NCBI RefSeq assembly: GCF_002831585.1
Contig: NZ_CP025114.1
Location: 1 to 64,000, forward strand
DNA from: Bradyrhizobium sp. SK17
GTDB lineage: Bacteria > Pseudomonadota > Alphaproteobacteria > Rhizobiales > Xanthobacteraceae
Direction: 5' to 3'
Length of the DNA: 64,000 nt
In this document: in pieces, positions 16,451 to 34,065 of the stretch
Layout: every line of letters begins with the position of its first letter
How positions within the stretch are numbered: the first letter of the stretch is position 1
Notes under the pieces: generated by a model
Told to the model about the DNA's origin: nothing
The model's input: only the letters and a program-made list of their open reading frames with translations
The model's database searches: none
Position numbers and translations under genes: made by a program

Positions 16451-16634
16451 TCAGCGCCTGTTGGCGAGTTCGACCAGCACGTCGCCGTGGCATGCGAGCG
16501 GCGCGCAGAAATGAGATCGCGCCCGCGCAGTTGCTCGAGCGCATTCATCAGCGCAGGTTGCGCAGCGATCCAAGCGCGATATTTTGCGATGACCTCGGCG
16601 CGCGTGCCGTCGCGGCCGATGACGAATGGATTGC
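16451..16634 (-). pseudogene. DUF4326 gene, 3' part (displaced by mercury element)
   Basis: Read on the minus strand this encodes PFVIGRDGTRAEVIAKYRAW ... LMNALEQLRGRDLI and, after restoring one T near 16519, CAPLACHGDVLVELANRR and stop. That is the C-terminal half of a DUF4326 protein, a small plasmid- and phage-borne family. The N-terminal half sits at 27517-27604 on the same strand; the two were one gene before insertion of the 16635-27516 element. The family's function is unknown. Confidence 0.8.
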
Positions 16635-16637
16635 TTA

Positions 16638-17684
16638 GAGCGTTTCATTGCTTAATTGAATCGGAGGGGATTCCGGTTTTGGGCGGTTTGTGATTCAAGA
16701 TGCTGACTGGATTGGAGGCCAGCATCGCATGACCCGACCTCTTTCCCTTGATCTTCGCGAACGTGTGGTGGCGTCGGTTCTGGCGGGCGAGAGCTGCCGG
16801 TCTGTGGCGGAACGGTTTGGCGTTGCGGTCTCATCGGTTGTGAAGTGGTCACAGCGGCAGCGGGCGACCGGCTCGGTTGTGCCTGGCAAGATGGGCGGTC
16901 ACCGCAAGCCTGTGCTTGATCCGCACCGCGCCTTCATCGTCGAGCGGATCACTCAGACGCCTCACCTGACGCTGCATGGTCTGAAGGCGGAACTGGCAGC
17001 CCGTGGGGTCAAGGTCTCACACAACGCGGTCTGGCTGTTCCTGCGCCGGGAAGGGCTGCGGTTCAAAAAAAACACTGTTCGCTCTCGAACAGGCTCGCGC
17101 CGACGTCTCTCGTAGGCGTCAGCGTTGGCGATCCTGGCAGGCCGGGCTCGATCCGGGCCGCCTCGTCTTCATCGATGAGACCTGGATCAAGACCAACATG
17201 GCCCCTTTGCGAGGCTGGGGCCCCAAAGGGGCACGCCTGCGCGGCTTCGCCCCGCACGGTCACTGGCGTACCCTCACATTCCTCGGCGCGCTCCGCCATG
17301 ACCAACTCACGGCACCCTGCGTCTTCGACGGCCCGATCAACGGCGAATGCTTCTGCGCTTATGTGAAGCACCTTCTCCTGCCAACCCTGCGCGAAGGCGA
17401 CATCGTCATTCTCGACAATCTCGGAAGCCACAAGTCGAAAGCTGTCAGGCAGATGATCCAGGCTGCTGGCGCCAGGCTCTGGTACCTGCCGCCATACTCG
17501 CCCGACCTCAACCCGATCGAGCAGGCCTTCTCCAAGATCAAACACTGGATGCGGCAAGCTCAGAAGCGCACCATCGAGGACACCTGGCGCCACATCGGTC
17601 AGCTCGTCCAGGACATCCAGCCTCGCGAATGCGCCAACTACTTCGCTAACGCGGGTTATGCTTCAGTCAAAATGTGAAACGCTC
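16638..17684 (+). mobile_element. IS630-family element, copy 2
   Basis: Same 1047 bases as copy 1 at 11264-12310, same orientation, flanked by TA at 16636-16637 and 17685-17686. The TA lies within the TTAGGT tip of the mercury element. The insertion therefore came after the transposon landed in DUF4326 or at least after the tip existed, and it may hinder excision. With copy 1 it brackets gajA, prlF-yhaV, the 300-residue ORF and the DUF4326 remnant. Confidence 0.93.
16729..17677 (+). CDS. IS630 transposase, copy 2, two frames joined at an A8 run
   Basis: The two frames (16729-17115 and the overlapping frame to 17677) encode the same products as in copy 1: an N-terminal HTH part and a DDE part with VFIDETWIK, ILDNLGSHKS and YSPDLNPIEQAF. 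The A8 tract at 17065-17072 is retained, so both copies need the same one-base slip to give the full enzyme. No difference from copy 1 was noticed. Confidence 0.88.
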
Positions 17685-17746
17685 TAGGTCAGATGTCAAG
17701 TGTCCTTCGTTGATGAAACTTTTGGAATCTTTTTCCTTTCCGACGG

Positions 17747-17766
17747 ATGACACCTTGCGGTGTCAT
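17747..17766. repeat. perfect hairpin near the left end of the mercury element
   Basis: ATGACACC-TTGC-GGTGTCAT, an eight-base stem with a four-base loop about 60 bases inside the left tip. The right end has its own hairpin cluster. It might be a subterminal binding site for the recombinases or a weak terminator for merR (transcribed toward it). The stretch 17770-17960 has no gene I can support. Confidence 0.5.
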
Positions 17767-17963
17767 TTGGACCGATTCACTCCGGCCGGGCTGAGCCGCA
17801 TGGCCAGTGGCTTGATCGCCACCATGCGAGCAAGCGAGCGACTGCGCTCTGATGCAATCAAGCGGGAAATTGGAGCGCGCCGTGGATATCGGCGGATCAA
17901 TTGGGAGGAATGGGCAACAGCTTATGGGTGTCGAGACTTCGATCGCCCGCGACGTTGTCGCGC

Positions 17964-18446
17964 TCACGCTGGACGCGCGACTTTCGTCACTTCGGCCCTG
18001 CGCCGAGCTCGGGCGGGACGCGCGCCGCCGGCGACAGACCTCATCTCGAAAAGGGCATCGATGATCGGGCACTCCGGAACCTGATCGCCCTTGCATTGCG
18101 CCGCCATGTCCGACATCGCCCGCTCCAACCGCTGCAGGTCGACGATCTTCCGACGGATATCCCTGAGATGTTCGACGGTCAGCGCGTTGACCTCCGCACA
18201 GGTGAAGGCGTGCCCGTCAACCAGGCGGAGCAGGTTACGCAATTCGTCGAGGCTGAAGCCAAGTTCTCGACCCCGACGAACGAAATGCAGCCGCCTGACA
18301 TGCTCGACCCCGTAGATGCGGTAGCCGGCGGCGCTGCGAGCCGGCGCCGGCATGATGCCGATCTTCTCGTAGTAGCGGATTGTCTCGATGTTCACTTCGC
18401 TGCGCTCTGACAATGCCCCGATCGAAAAGTCTTCGGTTTGCTTCAT
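17964..18446 (-). CDS. merR: MerR, mercury-responsive regulator
   Basis: A 160-residue MerR-family protein with an N-terminal winged HTH (FSIGALSERSEVNIETIRYY, then YEKIGIMPAPARSAAGYRIY) and a dimerisation helix. Three cysteines stand where mercury-type MerR proteins bind Hg(II): one in HAFTCAEVNAL, one in AAQCKGDQ and one in ECPIIDALF. ATG 18446 is chosen over GTG 18458 by family length. It is divergent from merT and faces a promoter with the long 19-base spacer that MerR untwists on metal binding. A role in repression without Hg and activation with Hg is established for the family. Confidence 0.93.
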   Translation of the reverse strand: MKQTEDFSIGALSERSEVNIETIRYYEKIGIMPAPARSAAGYRIYGVEHVRRLHFVRRGRELGFSLDELRNLLRLVDGHAFTCAEVNALTVEHLRDIRRKIVDLQRLERAMSDMAAQCKGDQVPECPIIDALFEMRSVAGGARPARARRRAEVTKVARPA

Positions 18447-18479
18447 TTTTGGCCTCACAAATCCGTGAGAAGTTCTCGC

Positions 18480-18510
18480 TTGACCCTGTAGTCCCTACAG
18501 GCCTTAGGGT
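18480..18510 (+). promoter_or_regulatory. mer promoter/operator with 19-base spacer
   Basis: TTGACC (18480-18485) and TAGGGT (18505-18510) are separated by exactly 19 bases, the spacing typical of MerR-controlled promoters. Within the spacer CCTGTAG-TCC-CTACAGG forms an inverted repeat for the MerR dimer. merT begins 31 bases downstream. Confidence 0.88.
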
Positions 18511-18540
18511 CACCATAGATCGATTTCGGGAGCGTGTTCA

Positions 18541-18990
18541 ATGACGGTGCGAGACGAGGCAACAGCGCTGCCAAACGAGGTCATGACGACGACGCGGAAT
18601 CAATTGGGCGCTGCGGCGCTGCAGGCGAATGACCGAACCAAGGGCGGCGCCTCGCGGCTCCTCGCGGCGGGCGGCATCCTGGCAGCGCTCGGCGCCGCAT
18701 CGTGCTGCGTCATACCATTCGCCCTTTTCACGCTGGGCGTCAGCGGCGCCTGGATCGGCAATCTGACTGCGCTGGAGCCGTATCAACCGCTCTTCGCCCT
18801 CGTCGCGCTGGGCTTCATCGGTTACGGCGCTTATCGGGTCTACGCCAAACCGAAAGCTGCATGCGTCCCGGGGTCTTATTGCGCCGATCCGAAGTCCGAC
18901 AGATTGGCCAAGATCGGTCTTTGGGCCGCGACCGGGCTCGTCATTGTCGCGCTCGGCTTCCCCTACCTCATCCGCGCCATCGCATTCTGA
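18541..18990 (+). CDS. merT: MerT, inner-membrane mercuric ion transporter
   Basis: A 149-residue membrane protein with three hydrophobic helices. The first has the paired cysteines of MerT (AALGAASCCVIPFALF), and the loop after the second has a second pair (AACVPGSYCADP), the route by which Hg(II) is passed inward from MerP to MerA. It is longer at the N-terminus than usual by some 30 residues; ATG 18583 would give a standard length, but GGGAG sits properly before ATG 18541. It is the first gene of the mer operon and lies just after the MerR promoter. Confidence 0.92.
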   Translation: MTVRDEATALPNEVMTTTRNQLGAAALQANDRTKGGASRLLAAGGILAALGAASCCVIPFALFTLGVSGAWIGNLTALEPYQPLFALVALGFIGYGAYRVYAKPKAACVPGSYCADPKSDRLAKIGLWAATGLVIVALGFPYLIRAIAF

Positions 18991-19005
18991 ACCCAGGAGA
19001 TCGCC

Positions 19006-19305
19006 ATGTTTCATCGCCTTGCATCCGCCGTCCTGACCATCGGCTTGTTCGCTGCGCCCTCGCTCGCCGTCGCGGCCGAATCGACGGTCACCCTCGCCGT
19101 CCATCACGCGGGGTGCGTCCTTTGTGGTCCCATCGTCAAAAGCACTCTGGAACACGTGACCGGCGTGAAATCGGTTCAGGTAAGCCAGGCCGACGGCATG
19201 GATGACGTCACGGCGACGGTGCTGTTCGACAATGCTCTCACGTCCCCGAACGCCATGATCAAGGCGACAACCGATCATGGCTATCCCGCCGATCTGAAGT
19301 CATGA
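19006..19305 (+). CDS. merP: MerP, periplasmic mercury-binding protein (divergent metal motif)
   Basis: A 99-residue protein with a signal peptide (MFHRLASAVLTIGLFAAPSL, cleavage near AVAA) and a heavy-metal-associated domain. The metal loop is HHAGCVLCGPIVK, keeping the C-x-x-C but replacing the common GMTCAAC. Its job is to bind Hg(II) in the periplasm and hand it to MerT. It starts 15 bases after merT and its stop overlaps merF by ATGA. Confidence 0.88.
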   Translation: MFHRLASAVLTIGLFAAPSLAVAAESTVTLAVHHAGCVLCGPIVKSTLEHVTGVKSVQVSQADGMDDVTATVLFDNALTSPNAMIKATTDHGYPADLKS

Positions 19306-19565
19306 ACGCGGACGGGCAAGGCGTCAGGCCATTTGCTCTTGGAATTATTGGGGCCGTTTTGGCGGTAACCTGCTGTGGGGCGCCCATCCTGATCGCAAGT
19401 CTCGCGACCGCCGGCATTTCGGCGTCGCTTGCCGCGACGGGCTATGTCGGAATCGCGATTGTGCTGACAGGTTTGGCAGTCGCCGCCTTTTGGCTCGTTC
19501 GCCGCCGCTCAAGCGCTGATTGTTGCGCGAGTACATTGGACAGGAAGAGTTCAAATCATGAGTGA
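19302..19565 (+). CDS. merF: MerF-like mercury transport protein
   Basis: An 87-residue protein with two transmembrane helices. A cysteine pair lies in the first (AVTCCGAPILIASL) and another in the C-terminal tail (SADCCAST), the pattern of MerF, a small alternative Hg(II) importer. It overlaps merP by four bases and merA by eight, so translation is coupled. Length is close to the family's roughly 80 residues. Confidence 0.8.
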   Translation: MNADGQGVRPFALGIIGAVLAVTCCGAPILIASLATAGISASLAATGYVGIAIVLTGLAVAAFWLVRRRSSADCCASTLDRKSSNHE

Positions 19566-20991
19566 CTGCTGCGCGCCCGCGAAAAAAGGACAAAGCTACG
19601 ACCTCGTGGTCGTCGGCGCCGGCTCGGCCGGCTTTTCCGCCGCGATCACCGCCGCCGAGCAGGGTGCACAGGTCGCGCTCATCGGATACGGCACGATCGG
19701 CGGCACCTGCGTCAATATCGGCTGCGTGCCTTCGAAAGCGTTGATCCGGGCTACGGAGGCGGTGCACCACGCCAATGTCGCGCAAACTCGGTTCGCAGGC
19801 ATCGAAAGTGGCGCCCGCGTGGTCGATTGGGCCGCACAGATCGCCCAGAAGGACGCTTTGGTCGCTGGACTGCGTCAGGCGAAATACGCCGACCTCCTGC
19901 CCGAATACAACAACGTAGCCTACCGAGAAGGTCAGGCCCGGCTCGTCGCTGGCGGCGTCGACGTGGATGGTCAGCGGCTCACTTCGGAGCGCATCATCGT
20001 TGCAACTGGTGCGCGCCCCGCGCTGCCGCTGATTCCCGGAATCGCCGACGTCTCGCCGCTCGACAGCACGGCGGCGCTCGCCATGTCGCAACTACCGCGT
20101 TCGTTGATCGTGCTTGGCGGCGGCTATGTGGGGGCTGAACTCGCCCAAACCTTCGCGCGCGCTGGCGTCGCGGTCACGCTGGTCTTTCGCAGTCGGCTCC
20201 TGCCGGAGGCCGAGCCCGAGATCGGATCGGCTCTCGCGGGCTACCTCGCCGATGAAGGGATCACAGTCATCAGCGGAGCGGCCTATGATTCCGTCCGCAG
20301 GACCGATGACGGCGGTGTGGCTCTCGCCATTATCCGCAGCGGCCGTCCGGACATATTGACAGCCGAGCGGATTCTCGTGGCGACCGGGCGCACGCCGAAT
20401 ACTGAAACTCTCGGCCTCGCCGAGGCCGGCGTCACGCAGGCGTCGTCCGGCTCGATCGTCATCGACGACCGTATGCGCACGTCGAAAGCGGGCGTCTATG
20501 CGGTCGGCGACGTGACAGGCAAAGACCAGTTCGTCTACATGGCGGCCTATGGCGCAAAGCTCGCGGCCAAGAACGCGCTGAACGGCAACAGCCTGCGTTA
20601 TGACAACTCGGCGATGCCGGCAGTCGTGTTCACCGATCCACAGGTGGCGAGCGTCGGTTTGACCGAGGCGCAAGCCCGCGCTGGCGGGCACGCCGTGCGA
20701 ACCTCGGTGCTCTCACTCGACAATGTGCCCCGCGCGCTTGCAGCCCGCGACACCCGAGGACTGATCAAGCTCGTGGCGGACGGCGCAACCCGAAAACTGC
20801 TCGGCGCGCACATTCTGGCGCCGGAGGGCGCCGACAGCATCCAGACGGCGGCGCTGGCGATCCGCTGCGGTCTCACGATTGATGACCTCTCAGAGGCGAT
20901 CTTCCCCTACCTCACGACCGTCGAGGGGCTGAAACTCGCGGCGCAGACGTTCGACAAGGATGTCAAGAAGCTGTCCTGCTGTGCGGGCTAA
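19558..20991 (+). CDS. merA: MerA, mercuric reductase (short form)
   Basis: A 477-residue flavoprotein disulphide reductase that reduces Hg(II) to Hg(0) with NADPH. FAD binding is seen at VVVGAGSAGFSAAI (near residue 18), the redox-active pair at GGTCVNIGCVPSK (near residue 50), the NADPH fold at VLGGGYVGAELAQ, and the C-terminal Cys pair at KKLSCCAG. The usual N-terminal heavy-metal domain is missing; in its place is a short MSDCCAPAKK with a Cys pair. Cytosolic. Fits with MerT/MerF import upstream and MerB downstream. Confidence 0.95.
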   Translation: MSDCCAPAKKGQSYDLVVVGAGSAGFSAAITAAEQGAQVALIGYGTIGGTCVNIGCVPSKALIRATEAVHHANVAQTRFAGIESGARVVDWAAQIAQKDALVAGLRQAKYADLLPEYNNVAYREGQARLVAGGVDVDGQRLTSERIIVATGARPALPLIPGIADVSPLDSTAALAMSQLPRSLIVLGGGYVGAELAQTFARAGVAVTLVFRSRLLPEAEPEIGSALAGYLADEGITVISGAAYDSVRRTDDGGVALAIIRSGRPDILTAERILVATGRTPNTETLGLAEAGVTQASSGSIVIDDRMRTSKAGVYAVGDVTGKDQFVYMAAYGAKLAAKNALNGNSLRYDNSAMPAVVFTDPQVASVGLTEAQARAGGHAVRTSVLSLDNVPRALAARDTRGLIKLVADGATRKLLGAHILAPEGADSIQTAALAIRCGLTIDDLSEAIFPYLTTVEGLKLAAQTFDKDVKKLSCCAG

Positions 20992-21020
20992 GGCAATGGC
21001 GTTCATGTGAAGGGCGAACC

Positions 21021-21797
21021 ATGAAAACCGATGCGCATGCGCAATTAGAGCCGGCGGTAGAGATTCGGCCTGGGGTCTTTCGCCCTGATTGGTCGGCAGT
21101 GACGAAGCCGAGGGCGAGGGAAGCTCTTGCCGGCCGTCTGGCTGCGCGCGCCGGACTGCTGGACAAGTGGTCTCACAGGCTCGATGCAAATGACGATCTC
21201 GTATGGCGCGCGATCTTGCAGTTCTATGGCGATCATGGCCAGCCTCCGCAGATTGCGGACATCGCCGGTGAAATCGGATTCGAGATCGATCACGTCGAAA
21301 CGGCGCTCCGCGCGCTGGACTCGAATGATCTGATCGGACTCGATCGCGATTCCGGGCAAATCCGCTTGGCCTATCCGTTCACGGAAGCAGTCACCGCCCA
21401 TCGGGTCGATCTCAATGGGCACACCCTCCACGCTCTCTGTGCGATCGACGCGCTCGGCGCCGCAGACATGTATGGCGCGGACATATCGATCTCATCACCA
21501 TGCCGTCACTGCGGGTCGCAGATCGAAGTGACGACGACTGCGGATGGTCGGGCGCCGAAAAGCGTTGCCCCAGCAGGTGCGGTTGTTTGGTACGACTTCG
21601 CCTATGACGGCTGCGCTGCCGGCTCTTGTTGCCCGTCGATCGCATTCTTTTGCTCGGACGCGCATTTGCAGCAATGGCTTGATGTTCAAACACCACGACG
21701 TGACGGCACTGGCTTGACCGTGGATGAGGCCTTGGAGGTCGGCCGCGCCATCTTTGGCCCGGTCCTCACTGACCCGCTCTCGGACACCTTGCGCTGA
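21021..21797 (+). CDS. merB: MerB, organomercurial lyase
   Basis: A 258-residue alkylmercury lyase. The family catalytic residues are visible: Cys in HTLHALCAIDALG with the Asp three residues on, and the second Cys in IAFFCSDAHLQQW. The enzyme splits carbon-mercury bonds and gives Hg(II) to MerA, making the operon broad-spectrum. The N-terminal helical part (about 60 residues more than the shortest MerB) may act in DNA- or protein-binding but shows no recognised motif. It lies 29 bases after merA in the same direction. Confidence 0.93.
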   Translation: MKTDAHAQLEPAVEIRPGVFRPDWSAVTKPRAREALAGRLAARAGLLDKWSHRLDANDDLVWRAILQFYGDHGQPPQIADIAGEIGFEIDHVETALRALDSNDLIGLDRDSGQIRLAYPFTEAVTAHRVDLNGHTLHALCAIDALGAADMYGADISISSPCRHCGSQIEVTTTADGRAPKSVAPAGAVVWYDFAYDGCAAGSCCPSIAFFCSDAHLQQWLDVQTPRRDGTGLTVDEALEVGRAIFGPVLTDPLSDTLR

Positions 21798-21844
21798 CTC
21801 GCAGTTGACGCCCTTCCTGCCGTGACACTGCGATCCTATCGAGA

Positions 21845-22321
21845 TCAAGCGTTGGTGGGCCGCAACACCGCAGGACGGCGAAGAACATCGATCTGCTTCG
21901 TAAGCTGGGCATTGCGGCGATCGGCCATTTCGGCCAGGCGTTCCGCCTCGACCGCGCGTCGCAATAATCCGGCATTCTCCGTCACAAGCTGCCTGATCTG
22001 GAGCTGCATGTCGCCAATTACGGCACGTTGCTCGGCGACCTTGTGCTCCACGCTACCGAGGCGATCGGGAATCGCTCCACGCTTTCGGGCTCGAGCGAGG
22101 TCGTCGAGGATATCGCGATGGTTGGTGTAGATGGCGTTGCGCGCGACGCCTGCCTCGCGGGCGAGCGCGGCGACCGTCAATCGGCGGCCTGGATACGTTG
22201 AAGCCAGCCGTTCGGGCGCCCCGCGAACAAGGCGATCGAGGGCCGCGCCCAGCTTGTCGGCGGTCGCCTGCATCCGCCGATCATAGGGGGTCGGCGGCGC
22301 CGGCGGGTTCGGGGGCGGCAT
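21845..22321 (-). CDS. DUF6262/TnpC-like accessory protein, trio 1
   Basis: A 158-residue protein with a HTH-like segment (LTVAALAREAGVARNAIYTN) and a C-terminal coiled coil rich in Leu, Glu and Arg (QLQIRQLVTENAGLLRRAVE). It overlaps the preceding recombinase gene by 41 bases, as does its counterpart in trio 2 (28415-28891), to which it is clearly related in sequence and length. The position and features match TnpC of Tn554, which biases orientation or raises frequency of transposition. That role is by analogy. Confidence 0.75.
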   Translation of the reverse strand: MPPPNPPAPPTPYDRRMQATADKLGAALDRLVRGAPERLASTYPGRRLTVAALAREAGVARNAIYTNHRDILDDLARARKRGAIPDRLGSVEHKVAEQRAVIGDMQLQIRQLVTENAGLLRRAVEAERLAEMADRRNAQLTKQIDVLRRPAVLRPTNA

Positions 22322-24179
22322 GGGAGTCTCCCGTAAGTTCGGCGAGGATGCGGTCGCATTCGGCGATCCGCGTGCGAGCGAGCGCGAGGCTGACTGGGTC
22401 GAGCCGAGAGTTGGAAAGCAGGCTGAGATTGCGGCTTCGCCGGGCTTCCCAGACCGGACGATGGCGTTCCGTTACGGCGAAGTTGGCGCAGCGGACGCAG
22501 GTGCTCTCGGTCCGCCAGGTTGGGTTGGGGCCATGTTCGTCACCGCGGCAGGCGGCGCTCTCGGCACGATAAGCGCAGTATCCCCAATCGCAGACACCGA
22601 GGCGCATGCCGCTCTCGTCGATCAGAAAATCGATATAGGCGGCGAGATCGCCGTCCATCGTTCGGCCGCGGAATTGTGATCGGTCCGCGAGCATTCTCCC
22701 TGCCCGACCACCGAGCCGACTGGCGGTCAGCAGCTCCTCCAGCGCGGCCCTGGTCTCGTCGAGGGCCTGGGCGTCGACGAGCTCGCCGAGCTCGAAATCC
22801 GTGCCGACATAGGCGCGATCAGTCATGATCCGGGTCACATGCCCGAAATGATGCTGCAAGGCGTGAAGGCCCGTGCGATCGCGCTTGCCGACGAATCGGG
22901 CGAAGGTCTTGCGGCCTTGATGGGTGGTCAGGTGCCAGGGACGACCATCGGTGTGCGCCGGCAAAGCGACGAACGGCGCGAAGGATCCGTTGAGCCGCGC
23001 AATAAGGCTGTGGAGGGTCAGGACGTCGGCAGAGCGTGTATCGACGATACCGTTGCCGCGCATGATCAACCAAAGCTCGGGGCGCCCGGTACGCCGCCGC
23101 AGCGGCTCAGAAAGCCGCTCGAGAACATCAATGGCGCGTAGGACGGGCGGTGGTGCGGCCCATAGATGCGGTTCGCCAGCACCGTGTGTGGCGGTCTTGA
23201 AGATGCGACCGCGCAGATAGCTGAAATCCTCGCAGCCGTCGGAGGCCGAACGATGCTCTACACATCCTGCCTCAAGCGCAAGAATCTCCGAAACTCTTGC
23301 TCCAACCAGGTACGCGATGGTGACGAAGCAGGCATCGTAGATTCGCTCCATTAGAAAGCGGAGCCGTTTGGCGGCCTCGATCTTCGGATGCCACGGGCTC
23401 TCTTCGCCGACGATCGTGGAAAAGCGGAAGCTATCGATCAGGGCGACAACCGCGGCGCGGAGCTTGCGATCGCCAAATCCTTGGGCGCGACGCTGCTCAT
23501 AAAGGGGCGCCGCCTGGTTGCGCAACGCGATCACATCATCCGCGGGCTGGCCGATCAGTCGAATGGCTGCTGACAGGAGGGGGACGGCAATGGCGTCCGG
23601 TGTATAAGGGAACGACCCACGGGAATCGCGCGTGTGGCCAGAAACGACGCTGGCGCGCTCGGCGGCGAACGGATGCTCTGGCGGGGGATTTATGAGCTTC
23701 CGCCGTTGCAGATAGAGCGACAGAATAATGATGGCGTAGGCATGCCGGCTGGATGCCGAGAGGGTCCCGCCTCGGCTCCGAGAGGGGCGGCTGGCGAGCG
23801 TGCGGAGGAAGCACTCCACGGCGTCGCGATCAAGTTCATCATAGCCGTGCATCCTCTCGGCGACCATCCAGCGGATGAGGATACGAAGCTTGCAGAAGCT
23901 GGCGACCAATGTGCGAGGACGGGCATGCACGCGGCCCAACGGCGGATCGACCCGCATTGACCAAAGAAATTGCCGAGTATCCTCCAGCCAGGCTGCCCAT
24001 TGCCTGTCGGTGAACCGGCTGCCGTCCGGAAGATCGAAGCTCCAGTCGATGCGAAGAAGGTGGCGCCGCAGGCCTGGGCGCATCCCGTCCAGATGCCATT
24101 GAGGATCCGTCCATTGCGACAGGGACGATATCTTGATCGGCGCCGACCTATCGCGGGTGGCAGCGACGCGTGCGGACAT
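22281..24179 (-). CDS. tyrosine recombinase 3 of trio 1 (TnpB-like)
   Basis: A 632-residue recombinase. The C-terminal catalytic part shows R in YLVGARVSEILALEAG, H-x-x-R in HLTTHQGRKTFARFVG, a HHFGHVT box and the Tyr in MTDRAYVGTDFEL. After this comes a cysteine/histidine-rich tail (CDWGYCAYRAESAACRG ... STCVRCANFAVTERH), likely a zinc-binding extension. It follows recombinase 2 with a 3-base gap. Large recombinases with such tails occur in Tn554-type and recombinase-in-trio elements. Its counterpart is at 28860-30746. Confidence 0.85.
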   Translation of the reverse strand: MSARVAATRDRSAPIKISSLSQWTDPQWHLDGMRPGLRRHLLRIDWSFDLPDGSRFTDRQWAAWLEDTRQFLWSMRVDPPLGRVHARPRTLVASFCKLRILIRWMVAERMHGYDELDRDAVECFLRTLASRPSRSRGGTLSASSRHAYAIIILSLYLQRRKLINPPPEHPFAAERASVVSGHTRDSRGSFPYTPDAIAVPLLSAAIRLIGQPADDVIALRNQAAPLYEQRRAQGFGDRKLRAAVVALIDSFRFSTIVGEESPWHPKIEAAKRLRFLMERIYDACFVTIAYLVGARVSEILALEAGCVEHRSASDGCEDFSYLRGRIFKTATHGAGEPHLWAAPPPVLRAIDVLERLSEPLRRRTGRPELWLIMRGNGIVDTRSADVLTLHSLIARLNGSFAPFVALPAHTDGRPWHLTTHQGRKTFARFVGKRDRTGLHALQHHFGHVTRIMTDRAYVGTDFELGELVDAQALDETRAALEELLTASRLGGRAGRMLADRSQFRGRTMDGDLAAYIDFLIDESGMRLGVCDWGYCAYRAESAACRGDEHGPNPTWRTESTCVRCANFAVTERHRPVWEARRSRNLSLLSNSRLDPVSLALARTRIAECDRILAELTGDSHAAPEPAGAADPL

Positions 24180-24182
24180 GAC

Positions 24183-26027
24183 TCACTCCAACTCGGGCAA
24201 CGGCGGCATGGTCGCCGCCAGGGCGCGCGCCTCGGCGTGCATCGCGTCCGGAAAATCGCGAAGAATATCGCCCGTGAGGATGCGATAACTCGGCGCATAG
24301 AGCATCTCCCAACGTCGCGGATCGAGCCTGCGCTTGGCTTGGTCGAGGCAGTCGATCGCGAGCAGAATGCGGGCAAGATGGTCGGCGTCGATCGGGATCA
24401 CGAGGCCTGGACACGTGAGGCACCCCCCGAAACGTGGGCAAACGCGGGCCGAGCCGTCTGGCGCCGTGATGAATGGAGCGAGGCAGTCGTGGCCGAAGAG
24501 GACCGTCGCGCGCTGTTGGTCGGACGTTTGCTCCGCCATGTTCCCTCCGGACCCGGAAATCCATGCGATCATGAGGTCTTGAAGGCGGGCGATCGTCTGG
24601 CGTTGAAGGCGCGTCGCCTCGGCGCTTCGAATGTATGTCTCGGTGGTGACGGGGCTCGCATGATTAAGGATTGCTTGGGCCGCCAGCACATCGCCGGCGG
24701 AGGCGCGATAGTGCTCGGTGGCAACGCTTCCGCGGAACAGGACGGGCGTGAAACGCTCGATCAGGCTGCGAGGGTTGTCGGGTTGTGTGGCGTTCCACGT
24801 GTCAATCCGACCGTTCGCGCGCGCAATGAAGCGATCGACGGCCTTCCTCAGAGTCGAATGATCTATCACTTCGGTGCGACCACGCCGTGTCCGGCGAGCG
24901 CCATCTTTGAAGGGGCTGCGTGTTAGAAACAATCGATCGCGCTGTCCGGGCGGCGCCTCGGCGACGAGTGGCTCGGTCAAGGCCAACACCATCTCGATGA
25001 GGTTGGGGGCGGCGTAGCGACGGCGGCGATCGAACGAGCGGCGTTGGGCCTTCTTCAGATGGCGTCCTGTCTTGGGCTTGCACCAGTCGACGATCACACG
25101 GTGCTCATCGAGCGGATGCGGCACGAGGCAATCGCGCTTGATCATGCGCAGCGGATCAGGATTGGCGGCAGTCTGGATTGCGATCGCGAGGAAGAATGGA
25201 ACCAAGCTGTCGATCGTGATGTGAAAGTGCTGGGACACGACGCGATAGCCGCCCCAATGCGCGCGCAACGTGTCGACCTTGATGCCGTGTCGTTCGAGAG
25301 CGGTGTGATCCGGCATGACTCCGCCTTCGACGCGGCTGATCCGCCAAATCCAGCGAGCGAGGCCCTGACCATGCCTGGCCTGCGGCGGTAGGTCGGGCAG
25401 CCTGATGATCTCCTGACCGTATTGGAAGCGATCCCAGACCTCGTCGATCTCCTCATAGCAGGCACGAAGGATCGTCTTGAGCTGGTCCGAAGAAAGACGA
25501 CGTCTCGGTTCCTGGTCCGAACGCCTGGTGGGAAACGGGTTGTAAGGAATATCAAGGTCGGCCGGGAGAGCCCCTGGCCTGTTGCGCTGGCACCAATGGA
25601 GGAGCGGCCGCAATACATCGAATGCGGTGGCGCTGGTTCCCCGTGAGGCGGCCGGTTTACGTCCCGAGCCGTCCGCAGCGCGTAACCACAGCACGTAGCG
25701 GCCTACGGCGCTGGAATCGAGATCGGTGGCAGACCCAATCAGCCCGTCTTGCGCCGCGAAACGTGCGAACCGTCGAAGCGCCATCCACGCTACGTAGCGG
25801 GTCGTGATAGCCAGATCAGAGTAGTGTTCCCGGAAGGCGTCGACCAGCAAGGCGCCGAGATCGCCGGGTAGTTCGGCGAGTTGCTGCGGATCGAAGATCT
25901 GAACGCGTTCGCCCCAGGCGTCGCGAAACTCGACCAGCGCCGCAACCGAGTGCTTTGCCGGGGCCTGCGGCGCAGGACAAACCGTGATGCGCCGATCGAT
26001 CGGTGGCGATATCCTACGGGCAATCAT
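24183..26027 (-). CDS. tyrosine recombinase 2 of trio 1
   Basis: A 614-residue protein of the phage-integrase fold with a degenerate catalytic box: HYRASAGDVLAAQAILNHAS and TTETYIRSAEATR hold an H-x-x-R-like, a NH in place of GH and the Tyr. Upstream RRRYAAPNLIEMVLALTE and ILRACYEEIDEVWDRF are shared with the trio 2 copy. The C-terminus has a Cys cluster (CPRFGGCLTCPGLVIP). It overlaps recombinase 1 by 14 bases. Whether it cuts DNA itself or only helps assembly is open. Confidence 0.83.
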   Translation of the reverse strand: MIARRISPPIDRRITVCPAPQAPAKHSVAALVEFRDAWGERVQIFDPQQLAELPGDLGALLVDAFREHYSDLAITTRYVAWMALRRFARFAAQDGLIGSATDLDSSAVGRYVLWLRAADGSGRKPAASRGTSATAFDVLRPLLHWCQRNRPGALPADLDIPYNPFPTRRSDQEPRRRLSSDQLKTILRACYEEIDEVWDRFQYGQEIIRLPDLPPQARHGQGLARWIWRISRVEGGVMPDHTALERHGIKVDTLRAHWGGYRVVSQHFHITIDSLVPFFLAIAIQTAANPDPLRMIKRDCLVPHPLDEHRVIVDWCKPKTGRHLKKAQRRSFDRRRRYAAPNLIEMVLALTEPLVAEAPPGQRDRLFLTRSPFKDGARRTRRGRTEVIDHSTLRKAVDRFIARANGRIDTWNATQPDNPRSLIERFTPVLFRGSVATEHYRASAGDVLAAQAILNHASPVTTETYIRSAEATRLQRQTIARLQDLMIAWISGSGGNMAEQTSDQQRATVLFGHDCLAPFITAPDGSARVCPRFGGCLTCPGLVIPIDADHLARILLAIDCLDQAKRRLDPRRWEMLYAPSYRILTGDILRDFPDAMHAEARALAATMPPLPELE

Positions 26028-27174
26028 CGCCGATCACTTCGCCGTAAAGGTAGGCCAGGCTGTCGACGAGCGCCTCGGAGTGAACCTCGACGCAGCGAAG
26101 ATATACGGCCGTGGACTGAATCGATGCGTGGCCGAGCAGGACCTGCACGATCTTCAGCGGGTTGAGGTCGGGCGACCTCGCGGCCTGCCGTTGAAGGCGC
26201 ACCAGCATGGTCATTGCGAAGGTGTGGCGGAGCCAGTGTCCGGAGCCCTCCAGCCCCGCCCTCCGAAACGCCGTGCTGAACGTGGCCGACAGGCGGGATC
26301 GTGTAACCGGGGCGCCGCCGCCGTTGAGGAAGAGCATCGTCGGTGGCCGGTACTCCGGTCGCGCATGGCGCACGCGCTTGACGAGCGCGGCGCGTTCCTC
26401 ACCGATATACCAATGGGTGCGATCGATCAGCCGCAGCGGCGGATAGGCGGTCCGGGGACGGTCGCCTTTGGTGACGGTCAGCGGCAATCCGACCAGCGGA
26501 TTCCGCTCAACGTCAAGATGCGCCACGACCGGAACCTGAGCGAGCTGTAGGCCGCACAGCTCTTTGCGGCGCATGCCGGTCGCCAACGCCCATTGCGCTA
26601 TCAGACCATATGGAGGATCGAGGGCGGCGAAGAGACGGCGCAGTTGATCGACGCGCAGCGGCCGTGGCAGCGCTTCAGCCTCCGCGATCGTCAGCACGTT
26701 GGCGGATACGATCGCCGGCCGTCGATCCAAATGCGCCAGCATGCCGCGGGGACGAGACGACCGTACCGACACATCGACATAGCCGAAGGGTAGTTCGGCG
26801 ACCAACCGATGGCGGTGCGCCCAGACGTAGAAACGGCAGATCGTTCGGACACGATCGTTGATGGTCGATCGGGCATAGGGTCTGCCAGTATGCGGGCTCG
26901 GAGCCGAAAACATTCTGTTCCGGTAGGCGGCAATCGTCCCCTCGTTCGCCATACGCCAGTCGAGGAGGCTCTGCTCTAGCGTGTCGAACCAATCGTACAG
27001 ATGTTCGGCGTATGTCCGTAGCGTATCGGCGGCATGCGATCGGCCAGGGACAACCGCGAGATCCAAGAGGTAGCGGAAGGCCGACTCGACGATCGCCATG
27101 TCCCGGTCGAGGAGGATCGGAAAACCGGCCGGAATGCCCTCGACGCCTTCGACCGCACGAACGATGGAGACCAT
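26014..27174 (-). CDS. tyrosine recombinase 1 of trio 1 (TnpA-like)
   Basis: A 386-residue recombinase with a full catalytic set: Arg 202/203 in LATGMRRKELCGL, a Lys in LTVTKGDRPR, His 313 and Arg 316 in GHWLRHTFAMT, His 349 in VLLGHASIQ and Tyr 358 in STAVYLRCVE. A SAM-like core-binding domain precedes it (LRTYAEHLYDWFDTLE). ATG 27174 is chosen since trio 2 starts at the same residue (MVSIVRAV), although the frame is open to 27249. It is the first gene of the recombinase operon and probably acts at the element's tips. Confidence 0.88.
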   Translation of the reverse strand: MVSIVRAVEGVEGIPAGFPILLDRDMAIVESAFRYLLDLAVVPGRSHAADTLRTYAEHLYDWFDTLEQSLLDWRMANEGTIAAYRNRMFSAPSPHTGRPYARSTINDRVRTICRFYVWAHRHRLVAELPFGYVDVSVRSSRPRGMLAHLDRRPAIVSANVLTIAEAEALPRPLRVDQLRRLFAALDPPYGLIAQWALATGMRRKELCGLQLAQVPVVAHLDVERNPLVGLPLTVTKGDRPRTAYPPLRLIDRTHWYIGEERAALVKRVRHARPEYRPPTMLFLNGGGAPVTRSRLSATFSTAFRRAGLEGSGHWLRHTFAMTMLVRLQRQAARSPDLNPLKIVQVLLGHASIQSTAVYLRCVEVHSEALVDSLAYLYGEVIGDDCP

Positions 27175-27249
27175 CCTGTCCCCGAATGCAGGATAACCGA
27201 AGGCGCGGAAGGCGTTGGGCCCGCGCAGATGGATACGCGACCATAGCAA

Positions 27250-27516
27250 AGGACAGATGACAGAAAGCGGAGCGCCTTCGGCGCGAGTCTATTTATTGGG
27301 TGCGAGGGTGTTCCCCCTCGCGCTCCCCCCGCTCGCCGCGTGGCAGGAGTGCAGGACTTTGCCTGCACTCCATTGACGAGCTTGTTGGGCCGCCGCCGCG
27401 TCAAGCGTTGTCCTCGCTGCGCTGCGGGAACGCTTGACCCGGACGTCTGACGCGCTAACCTGGCCACGGCGCTGGAATCGAACGCGATAAAGGACACCTC
27501 ATACCGCGTAACCTAA
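27250..27516. repeat. right-end subterminal region of mercury element, four hairpins
   Basis: A non-coding stretch between the recombinase operon and the tip, strongly alike to 33790-34065. Hairpins: GCGCC-TTC-GGCGC (27272-27284), GCGAGGG/CCCTCGC (27302-27321), GAGTGCAGG/CCTGCACTC (27347-27371) and TCAAGCGTT/AACGCTTGA (27402-27438). Then TAAAGGACACCTC and the terminal ACCTAA at 27511-27516. It likely holds recombinase sites and the trio promoter, or a structured RNA. Confidence 0.75.
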
Positions 27517-27604
27517 GATTGCCCCATTTGCTGGGGCGGCCGATGTAGACCTGCGTCGCGCTCGTACGCTTGCCGACCTTCCGCGCATTCAAAACCTTGC
27601 ACAT
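27517..27604 (-). pseudogene. DUF4326 gene, 5' part
   Basis: Reads [20 protein letters not shown] then IGRPSKWGN, the conserved start of DUF4326 proteins, and is then cut by the tip of the mercury element. ATG 27604 is preferred to ATG 27610 because AAGGAG lies at a normal distance. The missing part is at 16451-16634. It follows the DUF736 gene and a hairpin terminator. Confidence 0.82.
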
Positions 27605-27670: not shown

Positions 27671-27936
27671 TCAGTCGCGGCTCGGGCGAGACCAAATGAG
27701 CGAATAGCCTTCTTCGCCTTCAACCTCGACCAGCGTGGCGTAAATCGGAGCCGGGAAGCTCGGGTCGTCGAGCTTGACCGAGTGGTACTCGCGGCCCGTG
27801 TCCTGGGACTTCTTCTTCCACACAGCACCGAACTCGATGTTGGTGCCCGCCGAGCCTTGACGCTGAGGTTGAGGGTCTTGATGACTCCGGCGAACGAACC
27901 GTCTTCGTTGCGGGTGAACGTACCGATCTGAGCCAT
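27671..27936 (-). pseudogene. DUF736 protein, first copy (one frameshift)
   Basis: Starts [20 protein letters not shown], the DUF736 signature, then after an apparent one-base loss near 27864 continues [20 protein letters not shown] and ends with [12 protein letters not shown]. About 88 residues when repaired, close to the family length. DUF736 proteins are small, beta-rich, of unknown function and nearly universal on alphaproteobacterial plasmids and integrative elements. A leader conserved with the second DUF736 gene lies upstream. Confidence 0.78.
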
Positions 27937-28414
27937 AGGTCTTCTCCTTTGCTGTATCAGGTCGCGACCATCGCGGCCTTGATGGCGATCGGAAAACACC
28001 GGGCGACCGGCCCGCACCCGAAGGGCTGAAACGCAGTGGAAGGCGGCGCAGGGACGAGCTTCTTGCCTCGCGAGGAAGCCGCGCGGAGGCGTTAGCCGAG
28101 CACGGCGGGGAAGAAGGTCGTCATCGCGCTGTTGCGGGAACGAGGGCGGGCTGCGCAGCAGCCGAACGCGGTGTGAGATACGCCAGCAAGAAAGGCCGCA
28201 ATGGACGCACTTCTGGACAGCCCTGCGAAGGAGAGACTCTGGCTTACGGCATAGAAACACCAACGACCACGGTCTGACGGACTATCGAGACACTTCCTGC
28301 GCATTGGCCACCCTCGTCATCCGAGAAGCTGCGAGGACGACATGATCCAGCTTCGTCCGGCAACGAGCTATCGGTGCATCGTGCGGCAAGAAGGCTGGGC
28401 GGGAAACGACATCA
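27937..28414. other. DUF736 leader and unexplained spacer
   Basis: The first 140 bases (27950-28075) resemble 34112-34233 upstream of the second DUF736 gene: a CGCGACCATCGCG palindrome-like segment, CCGCACCCGAAGGGC and an AGGGnCGAG-TTCTTG block. Beyond 28080 I see no gene and no TTAGGT tip that would mark the left end of the second recombinase element. Confidence 0.5.
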
Positions 28415-28891
28415 TCATCGACCCTCTCCGTGCTCACCGACCGACGATCGTAGCAACTGGGGGCGACGACGGTGATCAAGCTCCTTCGTTAACTGCGCGA
28501 TGCGGTGCTCGGCCCTGTCGGCACGGCGTTCCGCTTCGGTCGCGCGCCGCAGGAGTCCGGCATTCTCGGTCGCGAGCTGGCGAAGCTGACCCTGCATAAT
28601 ATCGACGGCGATGCGTTGTTCGGCGGCCTTCTCGGCGACGGCGGCGATCCGATCAGGAGCCCGCCGCTGCTGACGGACGCGGATCAGCTCGTCGAGGATA
28701 TCGCGGTGATTGGCGTAGATGGCATTACGTCCAACGCGCGCCTCCCTCGCGAGAGCTGCGACGGTCAATTGCCGTTCGATCATCGGAGACCCCACGGAGC
28801 TGCGGGCCAGGCGGTCGAGGGCAGCGCGCAGCTTCTCGGCTGTCGCTTGCACGCGCCGATCAAGTGGGTTTGCGGCCGTCATCTTCGGCAT
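28415..28891 (-). CDS. DUF6262/TnpC-like accessory protein, trio 2
   Basis: A 158-residue counterpart of 21845-22321, the same length, with LTVAALAREARVGRNAIYAN and a C-terminal coiled coil (GQLRQLATENAGLLRRATEA). ATG 28891 follows AGGAGGAG. It overlaps recombinase 3 by 32 bases. Sequence divergence from the first copy shows the two trios are old relatives and not a recent duplication. Confidence 0.75.
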   Translation of the reverse strand: MPKMTAANPLDRRVQATAEKLRAALDRLARSSVGSPMIERQLTVAALAREARVGRNAIYANHRDILDELIRVRQQRRAPDRIAAVAEKAAEQRIAVDIMQGQLRQLATENAGLLRRATEAERRADRAEHRIAQLTKELDHRRRPQLLRSSVGEHGEGR

Positions 28892-30746
28892 GGGCTCCTC
28901 CTGTAGCGGAAAGATCGGAAAGGACACGCTCGCACTCGGCAATGCGCGTTCTGGCGAGAGCGATGCTCGATGCATCGAGTCGATCGTCGGCGACCAAAGC
29001 GATGTTGCGATCAAGGCGCGCTTGCCAGACCGGGCGGTGCCGCTCAGTGACTGCGAAGTTAGCGCAGCTCATGCAGGTGCTCTCGGTGCGCCACAGCGGG
29101 TTCGGACCGCGTTCGTCCCCCATGCAAGCGGCGGACTCGACGCGATAGACACAATACCCCCAGTCGCAGACGCCGAGCCGCATGCCGCTCTCCTCGATGA
29201 GGAAATCGACATAGCCGGCGAGTTCGCCGTCGCGGGTCCGGCCGCGGAAGCGCGACCGCGACGACAGCATGCGCCCCGCCTTGCCGCCAAGACGCGACGC
29301 GGTGAGCAACTCCTCGAGCGCAGATCGCGTCTCGTCGAGTGTTTGCGCATCGACGAGTTCGCCGAGATCAAAATCTGTTCCGACATAGGCGCTGTCGGTC
29401 ATAATGCGGGTCACATGCCCGAAATGATGCTGCAAGGCATGAAGGCCGGTGCGGTCGCGCTTGCCGACGAAGCGGGCAAAGGTCTTACGGCCTTGGTGCG
29501 TGGTCAGACGCCAAGGCGTTCCATCGTCGTTGAGCGGCATGTCGATGAAAGCCGCAAATCTCTCGTTCAGACGGATAACGAGAGAACTGCCCGTTGGGAC
29601 CTCCGGCACGCGGCGATCGATGATGCCGTTCCCGGCGATGGAGAGCCACAGGTCCAACCGGCCGCTCTGAGCGCGCAAGGGTTCTGAGAGACGGCGCAAG
29701 ACGTCGACGGCACGCAGAACGGGCGGCGGCGCTGGCCAGAGGTGCGGCACGCCGGCATCGTTGCCGGCGGTCTTGAATATCCGGCCGCGGAGATAAGCAA
29801 AGGCTTCCGTCTTATCTGCGGACGGATGCTCCTCGACGCAGTGAGCATTGAGCGTCAGAATCTCCGAGGCTCTTGCGCCGACCAGATAGGCAATGGTGAC
29901 GAAGCAAGCTTCCTGGATGCGATTGATCAGCCCGCGCAGGTGCCTCGTTCGCGTCAACGGCGGATGCCAGGGCACGTTCTCGCCCTCGATCGTGGAAAAC
30001 CGAAATGAAGACACGAGTGCCCGGACGGCCTGCCGGTGAACGAAGAAGGAGCGACTTTGATCATCCATGCGAAACGGCACGGCCTGGTCGCGTAGTGCGA
30101 TCACGTCATCGGCCGGCTGTCCGATGAGTCGGATCGCGGCCGAGACGAGCGGCACGGCGATGGCATCGGGCGTGAATGGCAGGCGCTGCACGGTATGGCG
30201 GCTGAATCCGGAATGAGCGCCTACGCGGTCTTCGTCGAACGGGTGCTCTGGTGGTGGGCATGCGAGCTTGCGCCGTTGCTGGTAGAGGGCGAGCAAAAGG
30301 TTGGCGTAGTCGTGACGGGTCCCAGGTCTGATCAGCGCGCCATTGTGTCTTCGTCGCCCGGCAATGTCGTGCATGAACCGGGCGGCGGCATCGCGATCGA
30401 GGTCGCCGAAGCTGCGCATTGCTTGGCCAGCCATCCATCGGATCAGGATGCGGAGCTTGACGGCCGCGGCAACAAGGGTTCTCGCGCGGGCGTGCCGCCT
30501 GCCTGGCGGCGGATCGAGGCGAAGCGACCACAAAAAGATGCGCGCATCTTCCAGCCAGCGGCCCCAACATGGGTCTGTGAAGCGGCTGCCGTCTGGCAGT
30601 TCGAAATCCCAATCGATCTGGAGCTGCGATCTCCGCAGGTCGGATCGCAGGCCATCGAGATGCCATTGCGGGTCCGACCATAGCGACTCTGCCGAAACCT
30701 TCTGCGGCGGATCAACGTCATGCGTGGGATCAGCTTGGAGCAGCAT
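28860..30746 (-). CDS. tyrosine recombinase 3 of trio 2
   Basis: A 628-residue relative of 22281-24179 with LVGARASEILTLNAH, RLTTHQGRKTFARFVG, HHFGHVTRIMTDSAY and the Cys-rich tail (CDWGYCVYRVESAACMG, STCMSCANFAVTERH). Gene order, spacing (two bases after recombinase 2) and overlap with the DUF6262 gene match trio 1. The frame is intact, so the module may still be active. Confidence 0.85.
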   Translation of the reverse strand: MLLQADPTHDVDPPQKVSAESLWSDPQWHLDGLRSDLRRSQLQIDWDFELPDGSRFTDPCWGRWLEDARIFLWSLRLDPPPGRRHARARTLVAAAVKLRILIRWMAGQAMRSFGDLDRDAAARFMHDIAGRRRHNGALIRPGTRHDYANLLLALYQQRRKLACPPPEHPFDEDRVGAHSGFSRHTVQRLPFTPDAIAVPLVSAAIRLIGQPADDVIALRDQAVPFRMDDQSRSFFVHRQAVRALVSSFRFSTIEGENVPWHPPLTRTRHLRGLINRIQEACFVTIAYLVGARASEILTLNAHCVEEHPSADKTEAFAYLRGRIFKTAGNDAGVPHLWPAPPPVLRAVDVLRRLSEPLRAQSGRLDLWLSIAGNGIIDRRVPEVPTGSSLVIRLNERFAAFIDMPLNDDGTPWRLTTHQGRKTFARFVGKRDRTGLHALQHHFGHVTRIMTDSAYVGTDFDLGELVDAQTLDETRSALEELLTASRLGGKAGRMLSSRSRFRGRTRDGELAGYVDFLIEESGMRLGVCDWGYCVYRVESAACMGDERGPNPLWRTESTCMSCANFAVTERHRPVWQARLDRNIALVADDRLDASSIALARTRIAECERVLSDLSATGGAHAEDDGRKPT

Positions 30747-30748
30747 GA

Positions 30749-33722: not shown

Positions 33723-33789
33723 CCTGCTCTCCGGTGACGAAGCACCCGGAGGTGCAAGAGGACATCGACATCGCCCAAGTGCTTACCGT

Positions 33790-34065
33790 GTCGATGAAAC
33801 TGACAGATGACAGCACGCGAATAAAAGATACACGGAGCGCCTTCGGCGCGAGTCTTCCTTGAGATGCGAGGGGTTCCCCTCGCGCTCTCCCGTTCGCCAC
33901 GTGGCAGAGGTGCAGGACTTCGCCTGCACCCCTTCAAATAGCTTGTCGTGTCGCCGCCGCGTCAAGCGTTGTCCTCGCTACGCTGCGGGAACGCTTGACT
34001 CGGACGTCTGCGTGCCAGGCTCTCAGGCAATGCCGCTAAAGGACACTTCTCAGCACATGACCTAA
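33790..34065. repeat. right-end region of second recombinase element, four hairpins
   Basis: Same order of hairpins as 27250-27516: GCGCC-TTC-GGCGC (33837-33849), GCGAGGGG/CCCCTCGC (33866-33883), GGTGCAGG/CCTGCACC (33909-33930), TCAAGCGTT/AACGCTTGA (33962-33998), then TAAAGGACACTTCTC and the tip ACCTAA ending at 34065. The third stem differs from its partner by a paired change (A-T to G-C), which supports folding as a selected property. Confidence 0.75.

What the first reader, a model, noticed from the sequence alone, without database searches (positions are those of the whole stretch)
16635..27516. Mercury transposon with a recombinase trio, both tips and its empty site readable
The tips share TTAGGT and GTGTCCTT in inverted order, GATTGC stands on both sides, and deletion restores an uninterrupted DUF4326 frame through [16 protein letters not shown]. 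The cargo is a full broad-spectrum mer operon, and mobility comes from three tyrosine recombinases plus a DUF6262/TnpC-like protein. Tn554-type and recombinase-in-trio elements are known, but I do not know of a mer-carrying one that targets DUF4326; this is the best candidate for an undescribed element here.
Basis: partly seen in the sequence, partly recalled or inferred. Interest (0 to 1): 0.9.

Follow-up and report, generated by a model that had tools for sequence, protein, structure and literature searches.

The report
Mercury-resistance site-specific transposon with hairpin array
A plasmid of a soil bacterium carries a mercury-resistance jumping element with four recombination genes, and a conserved hairpin block beside those genes looks like the sites that single-stranded plasmids and phages use to start copying, which hints that these elements move as single-stranded circles.

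Summary
A 10,882-bp element (16635-27516; 1,047 bp of it a later IS630-like insertion inside one tip) sits in a DUF4326 gene. It has inverted tips TTAGGT-n-GTGTCC, GCAATC on both sides, and merR/T/P/F/A/B. One relative shows the site uninterrupted; another contig has the same insertion. It is not a Tn554 or RIT element. Its four core genes (recombinase, recombinase-fold protein without the box-I Arg, large recombinase, TnpC/DUF6262-like) match the SE/GInt class, with SE gene order. So: a new alphaproteobacterial member of a known kind; mercury cargo is already reported for GInts. In Bradyrhizobium BTAi1 six identical copies show a 6-bp pattern like that of SE and Tn554. The unexpected find is a ~175-nt hairpin block between tip and gene 1: 89% mean column identity over 20 elements, with covariation. 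Its core motifs recur in small plasmids and in ssDNA phages, nearly always on the strand expected to become single-stranded. I read it as a likely single-strand initiation site for a circular ssDNA intermediate; this is inferred, not shown.

The parts
16635..27516 (-). Element 1, tip to tip (operon read on minus strand); 10,882 bp including the IS630-like insertion
   Evidence: tips repeated in relatives
16629..16634 (+). GATTGC, 6-bp core on the distal side
27517..27522 (+). GATTGC, 6-bp core on the tnpA side
17685..17705 (+). Distal tip (rest of TTAGGT, then GTGTCC); first letters at 16635-16637
27492..27516 (-). tnpA-side tip TTAGGT-13-GTGTCC
16638..17684 (+). IS630-like insertion, TA on both sides (16636-16637, 17685-17686), DDE_3 transposase; splits the distal tip
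17964..18458 (-). merR-type regulator
   Evidence: best family MerR, below its curated cut-off
18541..18990 (+). merT-like
   Evidence: below cut-off
19006..19305 (+). merP-like
   Evidence: below cut-off
19302..19565 (+). merF-like
   Evidence: below cut-off
19558..20991 (+). merA, mercury(II) reductase
   Evidence: TIGR02053 541 bits, above cut-off
21021..21797 (+). merB-like organomercurial lyase
   Evidence: below cut-off
21845..22321 (-). gene 4, TnpC/DUF6262-like small protein (Srap/GinD position)
   Evidence: (E 3e-4, below cut-off)
22281..24179 (-). gene 3, large tyrosine recombinase with R..HQxR..H..Y (IntB position)
24183..26027 (-). gene 2, tyrosine-recombinase-fold protein with Asn at the box-I Arg position (Tfp position)
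26014..27249 (-). gene 1, ordinary tyrosine recombinase (IntA); start probably at 27174
27269..27447 (-). Conserved hairpin block of element 1, candidate single-strand initiation site
27517..27604 (-). DUF4326 target gene, N-terminal part
16451..16634 (-). DUF4326 target gene, C-terminal part, with a frameshift near its end
27851..34065 (-). Element 2, one-ended: distal tip deleted at about 27851
34041..34065 (-). tnpA-side tip of element 2, in the start of a DUF736 gene (34066-34104)
33834..34008 (-). Hairpin block of element 2
28415..33722 (-). Four-gene operon of element 2
27674..27936 (-). Carried DUF736 copy of element 2 fused by deletion to the backbone DUF736 remainder

Best explanation
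Element 1 is a site-specific transposon of the SE/GInt class: gene 1 (IntA), gene 2 (recombinase-fold protein), gene 3 (large recombinase) and gene 4 (TnpC-like) plus mer cargo. It uses a 6-bp core. The strand with the core next to gene 1 is cut and joined to the distal tip, giving a circle that carries the donor's tnpA-side hexamer. On insertion the target's own hexamer stays at the tnpA side and the donor's hexamer lands at the distal side. By tyrosine-recombinase chemistry (established knowledge) the strand so closed is the gene-1 sense strand. The hairpin block on that strand would be where host primase or RNA polymerase starts the complementary strand of a single-stranded circle. Shown here: anatomy, tips, empty sites, recent mobility of relatives, conservation and orientation of the block. 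Supported but not settled: the hexamer rule. Inferred: the copy-out route, the ssDNA stage and the function of the block (I give that last step about 0.45).
For: Tips, site and uninterrupted orthologs. Gene content and motifs; gene 2 model resembles XerH, Tn1549 integrase and Cre. Recent mobility: three chromosomal copies of element 2 and the B. betae plasmid copy are identical over 6,563 nt, and six BTAi1 copies over 6,534 nt. Hexamers: in BTAi1 distal GCGCTG x3, GCGCTT x2, GACATG x1 against six different tnpA-side hexamers, one of which (plasmid copy) is GCGCTG. Of 24 places with different hexamers, 17 have a spanning uninterrupted ortholog; the nearest fits the tnpA side better in 10, including all 4 with an ortholog above 84% identity. 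Block.
Against: Of those 17 places 4 are ties (L025, L083, L090, L100) and 3 fit the distal side better (L009, L085, L086), at nearest-ortholog identities of 67-82%. Element 1 itself has the same hexamer on both sides, as have 11 of 36 two-tipped rows, so these do not test the rule. Upstream stretches of outgroups L105-L108 (510, 780, 874 and 166 nt) lack the block motifs, so the block is not general to the class. Phage G4's annotated complementary-strand origin shows no similarity. No circle, ssDNA or transposition was observed. The IS in one tip may have stopped element 1.
Confidence: 0.76

Rival explanations
1. The element moves as a conventional double-stranded excision-integration element (cut-out, paste-in) and the hairpin block is a regulatory leader of the recombinase operon.
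For: The block lies directly upstream of gene 1; hairpins could attenuate transcription. PMC5385486 reports restored empty sites for some GInts. The hexamer rule has exceptions.
Against: The same motifs occur in small plasmids without recombinase genes beside them and in ssDNA phages. Six identical copies in one genome suit a copying route. Rfam has no known leader family here.
Confidence: 0.3
2. The block serves conjugation of the host plasmid (leading-region initiation or ssDNA promoter) and was merely captured by the element.
For: The motif lies beside an ardC-like zincin gene on Salipiger pTPRO6 (L161).
Against: All 79 motif hits at <=1 mismatch in L005-L092 lie at the same place and strand inside the element (counting L010, whose gene 1 start was misplaced); chromosomal copies keep it.
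Confidence: 0.15
3. A Tn554-type or RIT element.
For: TnpC/DUF6262-like gene 4 (below cut-off); brought-in att as in Tn552-II and Tn554.
Against: Four core genes, not three; one recombinase-like protein lacks a catalytic Arg; two proteins far exceed the size of the archetype RIT recombinases given in PMC10214605.
Confidence: 0.05

Closest known systems
Strand-biased circularizing integrative elements (SE; PMC10214605)
   Same: Order recombinase - recombinase-fold protein - large recombinase - small helper; imperfect inverted tips; 6-bp fingerprint/footprint (here supported, with exceptions); fixed targets
   Different: That survey found SEs in Gammaproteobacteria and no Tfp/Srap homologs in Alpha- or Betaproteobacteria. 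SE proteins were not compared here. A hairpin block is not described in the parts I read
GInt / Tn6571 family (PMC5385486; the name Tn6571 from passages of PMC10121019)
   Same: Three recombinase-like genes plus a small fourth gene, then cargo, 6-nt cuts, site specificity, mercury among listed cargo
   Different: In GInts the third gene lacks the first Arg, here the second does. DUF736, ParB-like or DUF4326 targets do not appear in the parts I read
Tn554 and Tn552-II (PMC12486829)
   Same: TnpC-like helper; target att kept on the left, donor att brought to the right; Tn552-II carries a target-gene-like copy, as element 2 carries DUF736
   Different: Three tnp genes; 7-bp att in Tn552-II; no gene-2 counterpart
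RIT elements (passages of PMC3414803; table note in PMC10214605)
   Same: Three adjacent tyrosine-recombinase-like genes
   Different: Archetype RIT proteins are 315-410 aa, all with the catalytic Tyr; only three coding regions
ssi / single-strand origins of small plasmids (e.g. pIGRK, passages of PMC6854812)
   Same: Palindromic hairpin site in the replication region
   Different: Sequence of the pIGRK ssi could not be compared

Membership tests
SE | intA-tfp-intB-srap order, second gene without RHRY, third with it | tested here: met
   Asn at the box-I Arg position of gene 2, gene 3 has R, HQxR, H, Y (4 family members aligned)
SE | Imperfect inverted terminal repeats | tested here: met
   TTAGGT-12/13-G/CTGTCC and TTAGGT-10-G/CTGTCC in most two-tipped members
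SE | 6-bp fingerprint at intA side is native, footprint at distal side is from donor | tested here: inconclusive
   10 of 17 places for, 4 ties, 3 against; BTAi1 pattern fits; relatives only, element 1 uninformative
[quoted passage not shown]
   needs DNA from the strain
SE | Tfp/Srap sequence cluster | not tested
   SE reference proteins were not fetched; the survey reports none in Alphaproteobacteria
GInt | Four-gene operon of three recombinase-like genes plus a small gene, then cargo | tested here: met
GInt | Third gene (GinC) is the one lacking the first Arg | tested here: not met
   second gene lacks it; for the definition
GInt | All four genes needed for excision and integration | not testable with these tools
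   needs mutants
Tn554 | Three genes tnpA, tnpB, tnpC | tested here: not met
   four core genes
RIT | Three catalytic recombinases of 315-410 aa (archetype), no fourth gene | tested here: not met
   411, 614, 632 aa plus a DUF6262-like gene; gene 2 lacks the box-I Arg
single-strand initiation site (ssi/sso) | Structured site outside annotated genes | tested here: met
   no annotated gene under the match in 17 of 19 full-length plasmid records; mechanical ORFs do overlap it
single-strand initiation site (ssi/sso) | Lies on the strand that becomes single-stranded | tested here: inconclusive
   rep-sense strand in 5 of 5 small plasmids fetched (L157, L158, L159, L163, L164); major coding strand in 31 of 32 motif rows of viral contigs <=15 kb; for the transposon the strand is predicted, not seen
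single-strand initiation site (ssi/sso) | Starts complementary-strand synthesis | not testable with these tools
   needs a phage or in vitro priming assay

The most novel reading that the evidence does not exclude
These transposons carry their own single-strand initiation site, of a type shared with small rolling-circle plasmids and ssDNA phages, on exactly the strand that their 6-bp footprint predicts to be circularised. The family would then transpose through a single-stranded DNA circle that is made double-stranded by host priming at this site: a transposon with a phage-like or plasmid-like complementary-strand origin.
Probability: 0.45. Interest if true: 0.85.

Novelty: new variant of a known kind. 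Interest (0 to 1): 0.62.

Why it matters
Whether SE, GInt and Tn554 elements move through single-stranded circles is open: PMC10214605 lists the movement of GInts, RITs and Tn554 as not tested and proposes an ssDNA or copied intermediate for SEs. A family with several identical copies per genome, exact tips, a readable footprint and a candidate complementary-strand origin makes that question testable in a harmless soil bacterium. It also places this class, with a mercury-resistance passenger, on plasmids and chromosomes of Alphaproteobacteria, where one survey had found none.

Tried and rejected
Rfam gave no match to the block (only a sub-threshold match elsewhere, at 20797). Phage G4's annotated complementary-strand origin was compared as a yardstick and does not resemble it, so I do not call it G4-type. 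The IncFII-type context (L166) resembles the recalled R1/R100 G-site position only loosely: the motif is about 2.3 kb from repA. A mer-operon source was not found: of 186 plasmid records matched none covers 80% of it; best is merA at 81% in Afipia carboxidovorans. No tRNA in the window. ParB-targeting elements showed no carried ParB copy in the tblastn. Contig C2 seems terminally redundant (IS copies at offset 262,745), but a letter-by-letter register check matched only 13,383 of 17,479 and I left it there. Rows dropped: for the block alignment the script found 22 distinct sequences from 49 regions (some skipped for lack of the bounding patterns, the rest identical duplicates) and I left out 2 (L051, L053), giving 20. 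L012 and L027 are one place. The 36 two-tipped rows include L012 and L027 and a doubtful L091; loci cut near a contig end were left out. The 49 regions are not de-duplicated. Of 81 long viral ORFs listed I scanned 78. My first hexamer count (9 of 13) missed elements; one search replaces it, and I lowered the main confidence from 0.78 to 0.76.
Full report
WHAT WAS CHECKED. The window is the start of contig C2 of an 8.29-Mb genome. The distal tip is split by a TA-flanked 1,047-bp IS630-like element (16638-17684); one search found four places with it, two of which may be a repeated contig end. Joined flanks give a DUF4326 frame that matches the intact 89-aa protein of B. betae pBbPL7HG1; in the window the C-terminal end is frameshifted. 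A MAG contig (L013) carries the same junction with an identical gene 1, while its upstream DUF736 is whole; B. betae has element 2 but a whole DUF4326. So the two insertions are independent.

A SECOND ELEMENT. The window holds a homologous four-gene set at 28415-33722 (69% nucleotide identity over 5.6 kb) with its tnpA-side tip at 34065 inside the start of a DUF736 gene. Its other tip is gone: the sequence is identical to the B. betae element into a carried DUF736 copy and then jumps to the backbone DUF736. Three complete copies lie on the chromosome of the same genome, each in a DUF736 gene. They and the B. betae copy are identical over 6,563 nt, and the truncated window copy over 6,214 nt. 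Twelve of twelve DUF736 insertions with both tips found carry a DUF736 copy near the distal tip; the single-tip loci L014, L015 and L091 showed none in the DNA held. This resembles the target-gene-like gene of Tn552-II, for which a rescue role was suggested (PMC12486829, abstract and part 1 of 2 of section 3).

THE FAMILY. tblastn of gene 1 matched 265 plasmid records, 22 of them at 60-80% identity; in genome contigs the best 80 of 280 loci were kept. 51 of 88 loci have the tnpA-side tip at <=1 mismatch. Judging by the flanking codons, targets are mostly DUF736 and ParB-like genes; DUF4326 only for element 1 and L013. mer genes lie within tips only in element 1, apart from weak merT/merR-like matches in L043. 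The aligned box-I Arg position of gene 2 is Asn in all 8 proteins compared (4 family, 4 outgroup); gene 3 has the full set in the 4 family members, while some outgroup residues differ. A predicted model of gene 2 (mean pLDDT 78, pTM 0.59) matches tyrosine recombinases best (10 PDB hits at E<=0.001, whole-length TM-scores under 0.3). In 40 relatives of the own genome searched besides itself, only one other (G017) has strong gene-1 matches.

CLASS. SEs have the order intA-tfp-intB-srap with a non-catalytic second gene; GInts have three recombinase-like genes and a small gene, with the third lacking the first Arg (PMC10214605: section 3 part 1 of 2, section 13, and passages; PMC5385486: abstract and parts 1-3 of 6). 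The present family has SE order. That survey reports no Tfp/Srap or ginC-ginD blocks in Alphaproteobacteria, while the GInt paper mentions alphaproteobacterial gin operons. I did not compare sequences with SE or GInt reference proteins, so I leave it as SE/GInt class. A search for DUF4326 listed 7 papers, mostly on phages and viruses, none with a title on transposons (listing only); Tn554 plus tyrosine recombinase plus mercury gave 2 papers.

MOVEMENT. In BTAi1 six copies with zero differences over 6,534 nt sit in six ParB-like genes. tnpA-side/distal hexamers are CCGCTA/GCGCTG, GCGCTG/GACATG (plasmid), AACATG/GCGCTT, GGCCTG/GCGCTG, GGTCTG/GCGCTT, GGACTT/GCGCTG. Distal hexamers recur and one equals the plasmid copy's tnpA-side hexamer, as expected if the donor's tnpA-side hexamer is carried along. 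Uninterrupted orthologs came from held loci and from four searches of 195 same-genus genomes each. Of 36 two-tipped rows 11 have equal hexamers; of the 24 places with different ones 17 have a spanning ortholog, and the nearest fits the tnpA side better in 10, ties in 4 (L025, L083, L090, L100) and fits the distal side better in 3 (L009, L085, L086). All four places with an ortholog above 84% identity (L012, L021, L023, L030) are among the 10.

THE HAIRPIN BLOCK. Between the tip and gene 1 lies a stretch with several hairpins. In 20 distinct elements its mean column identity is 89%, while gene-1 proteins in 7 elements are 60-77% identical to that of element 1. 98.8% of pair cells pair (slid controls 39-54%); six pairs have double changes, reached by 3 of 500 shuffles; no shuffle reaches the covariation score, but 68 reach the count of further pair types (shuffles ignore relatedness). 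At <=2 mismatches the H1 loop is in 38 of 49 and H3 in 40 of 49 tip-gene regions, never reversed. Nine regions have neither; seven of them have other perfect arms of 13-22 bp, two (L050, L090) only 6-7 bp. Folding z-scores against 60 shuffles run from -1.8 to -6.2 in 12 regions; element 1 itself is -2.0. Over loci L005-L092 all 79 motif hits at <=1 mismatch lie there on the gene-1 sense strand (L010's two hits were first scored elsewhere because its gene 1 start was misplaced).

WHERE ELSE. In the plasmid collection 19 of 20 matching records have the whole block; that it lies next to gene 1 I saw in the loci I fetched, not in every record. The exception is a 2,970-bp rep+mobV plasmid. A 70-nt piece at a loose threshold (E<=1) matches 118 records, among them many 2.95-kb plasmids and pZMO1A. 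Those replicons share the H1 loop, in several with arms GTCAAG..CTTGAC, and/or H2-H3. That L157, L159 and L164 replicate by rolling circle rests on their 'protein rep' annotation and recall; L158's type is not established. The motif is on the rep-sense strand in all five small plasmids fetched (L157, L158, L159, L163, L164). In two larger RepA plasmids it lies downstream of repA on the opposite strand (L165, L166). In the annotated phage collection the matches are weak (E 0.5-10): three inoviruses and one microvirus among dsDNA phages. Exact scans of viral contigs gave 28 stretches for H1 and 14 for H3, three shared. In contigs of at most 15 kb, 31 of 32 occurrences are on the major coding strand (21 of the 32 outside mechanical ORFs of 100 aa or more); in longer contigs 7 of 13. 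The 27 short contigs fall into 10 loose clusters, sign test 0.011 with one against. Of 78 long ORFs scanned, 13 match secretins, 8 G2P-type Rep, 6 Zot, 4 Rep_trans, 2 microvirus capsid; some match integrases, a transposase or ParB. In inoviruses and microviruses the coding strand is the packaged strand (established knowledge).

INFERENCE. In tyrosine recombination the cut lies at the 5' side of the spacer on each strand (established knowledge), so a joint that carries the tnpA-side hexamer closes the gene-1 sense strand. The block sits on that strand. Hence the proposal that the element makes an ssDNA circle and primes its complement at the block. My last literature search for tyrosine-recombinase elements with single-strand origins found 72 papers, of which I saw 15 in the listing; none of those titles makes this link.

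Noticed in passing
window 11262-12310 and 16638-17684; C2 274007, 279380: IS630-like copies at a constant offset of 262,745, suggesting that contig C2 (285,478 bp) is a circular plasmid with a repeated end; the in-register letter check was imperfect.
   Followed up: partly
window 34161-35348: IS110-like transposase next to element 2; in L160 and L161 IS110 genes also lie near the hairpin motif, so IS110 may favour such hairpins.
   Followed up: no
L007 6884-10640: B. betae pBbPL7HG1 has a different mer operon (merR, T, P, F, merBA) just outside its copy of element 2; its merA part is 70% identical to merA of element 1.
   Followed up: partly
L161 1881-3042: Hairpin motif upstream of an ardC-like zincin gene on a Salipiger plasmid, in the orientation expected for priming or transcription from a transferred strand.
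   Followed up: partly
L005, L007, L100-L102: The DUF736 copy carried by DUF736-targeting elements has a different 6-bp core (GGTTCG instead of AACGGC), which might protect it from self-insertion.
   Followed up: partly
window 40256-42067: Intact ParB-like gene whose ortholog is the target of the related element on BTAi1 plasmid pBBta01.
   Followed up: yes
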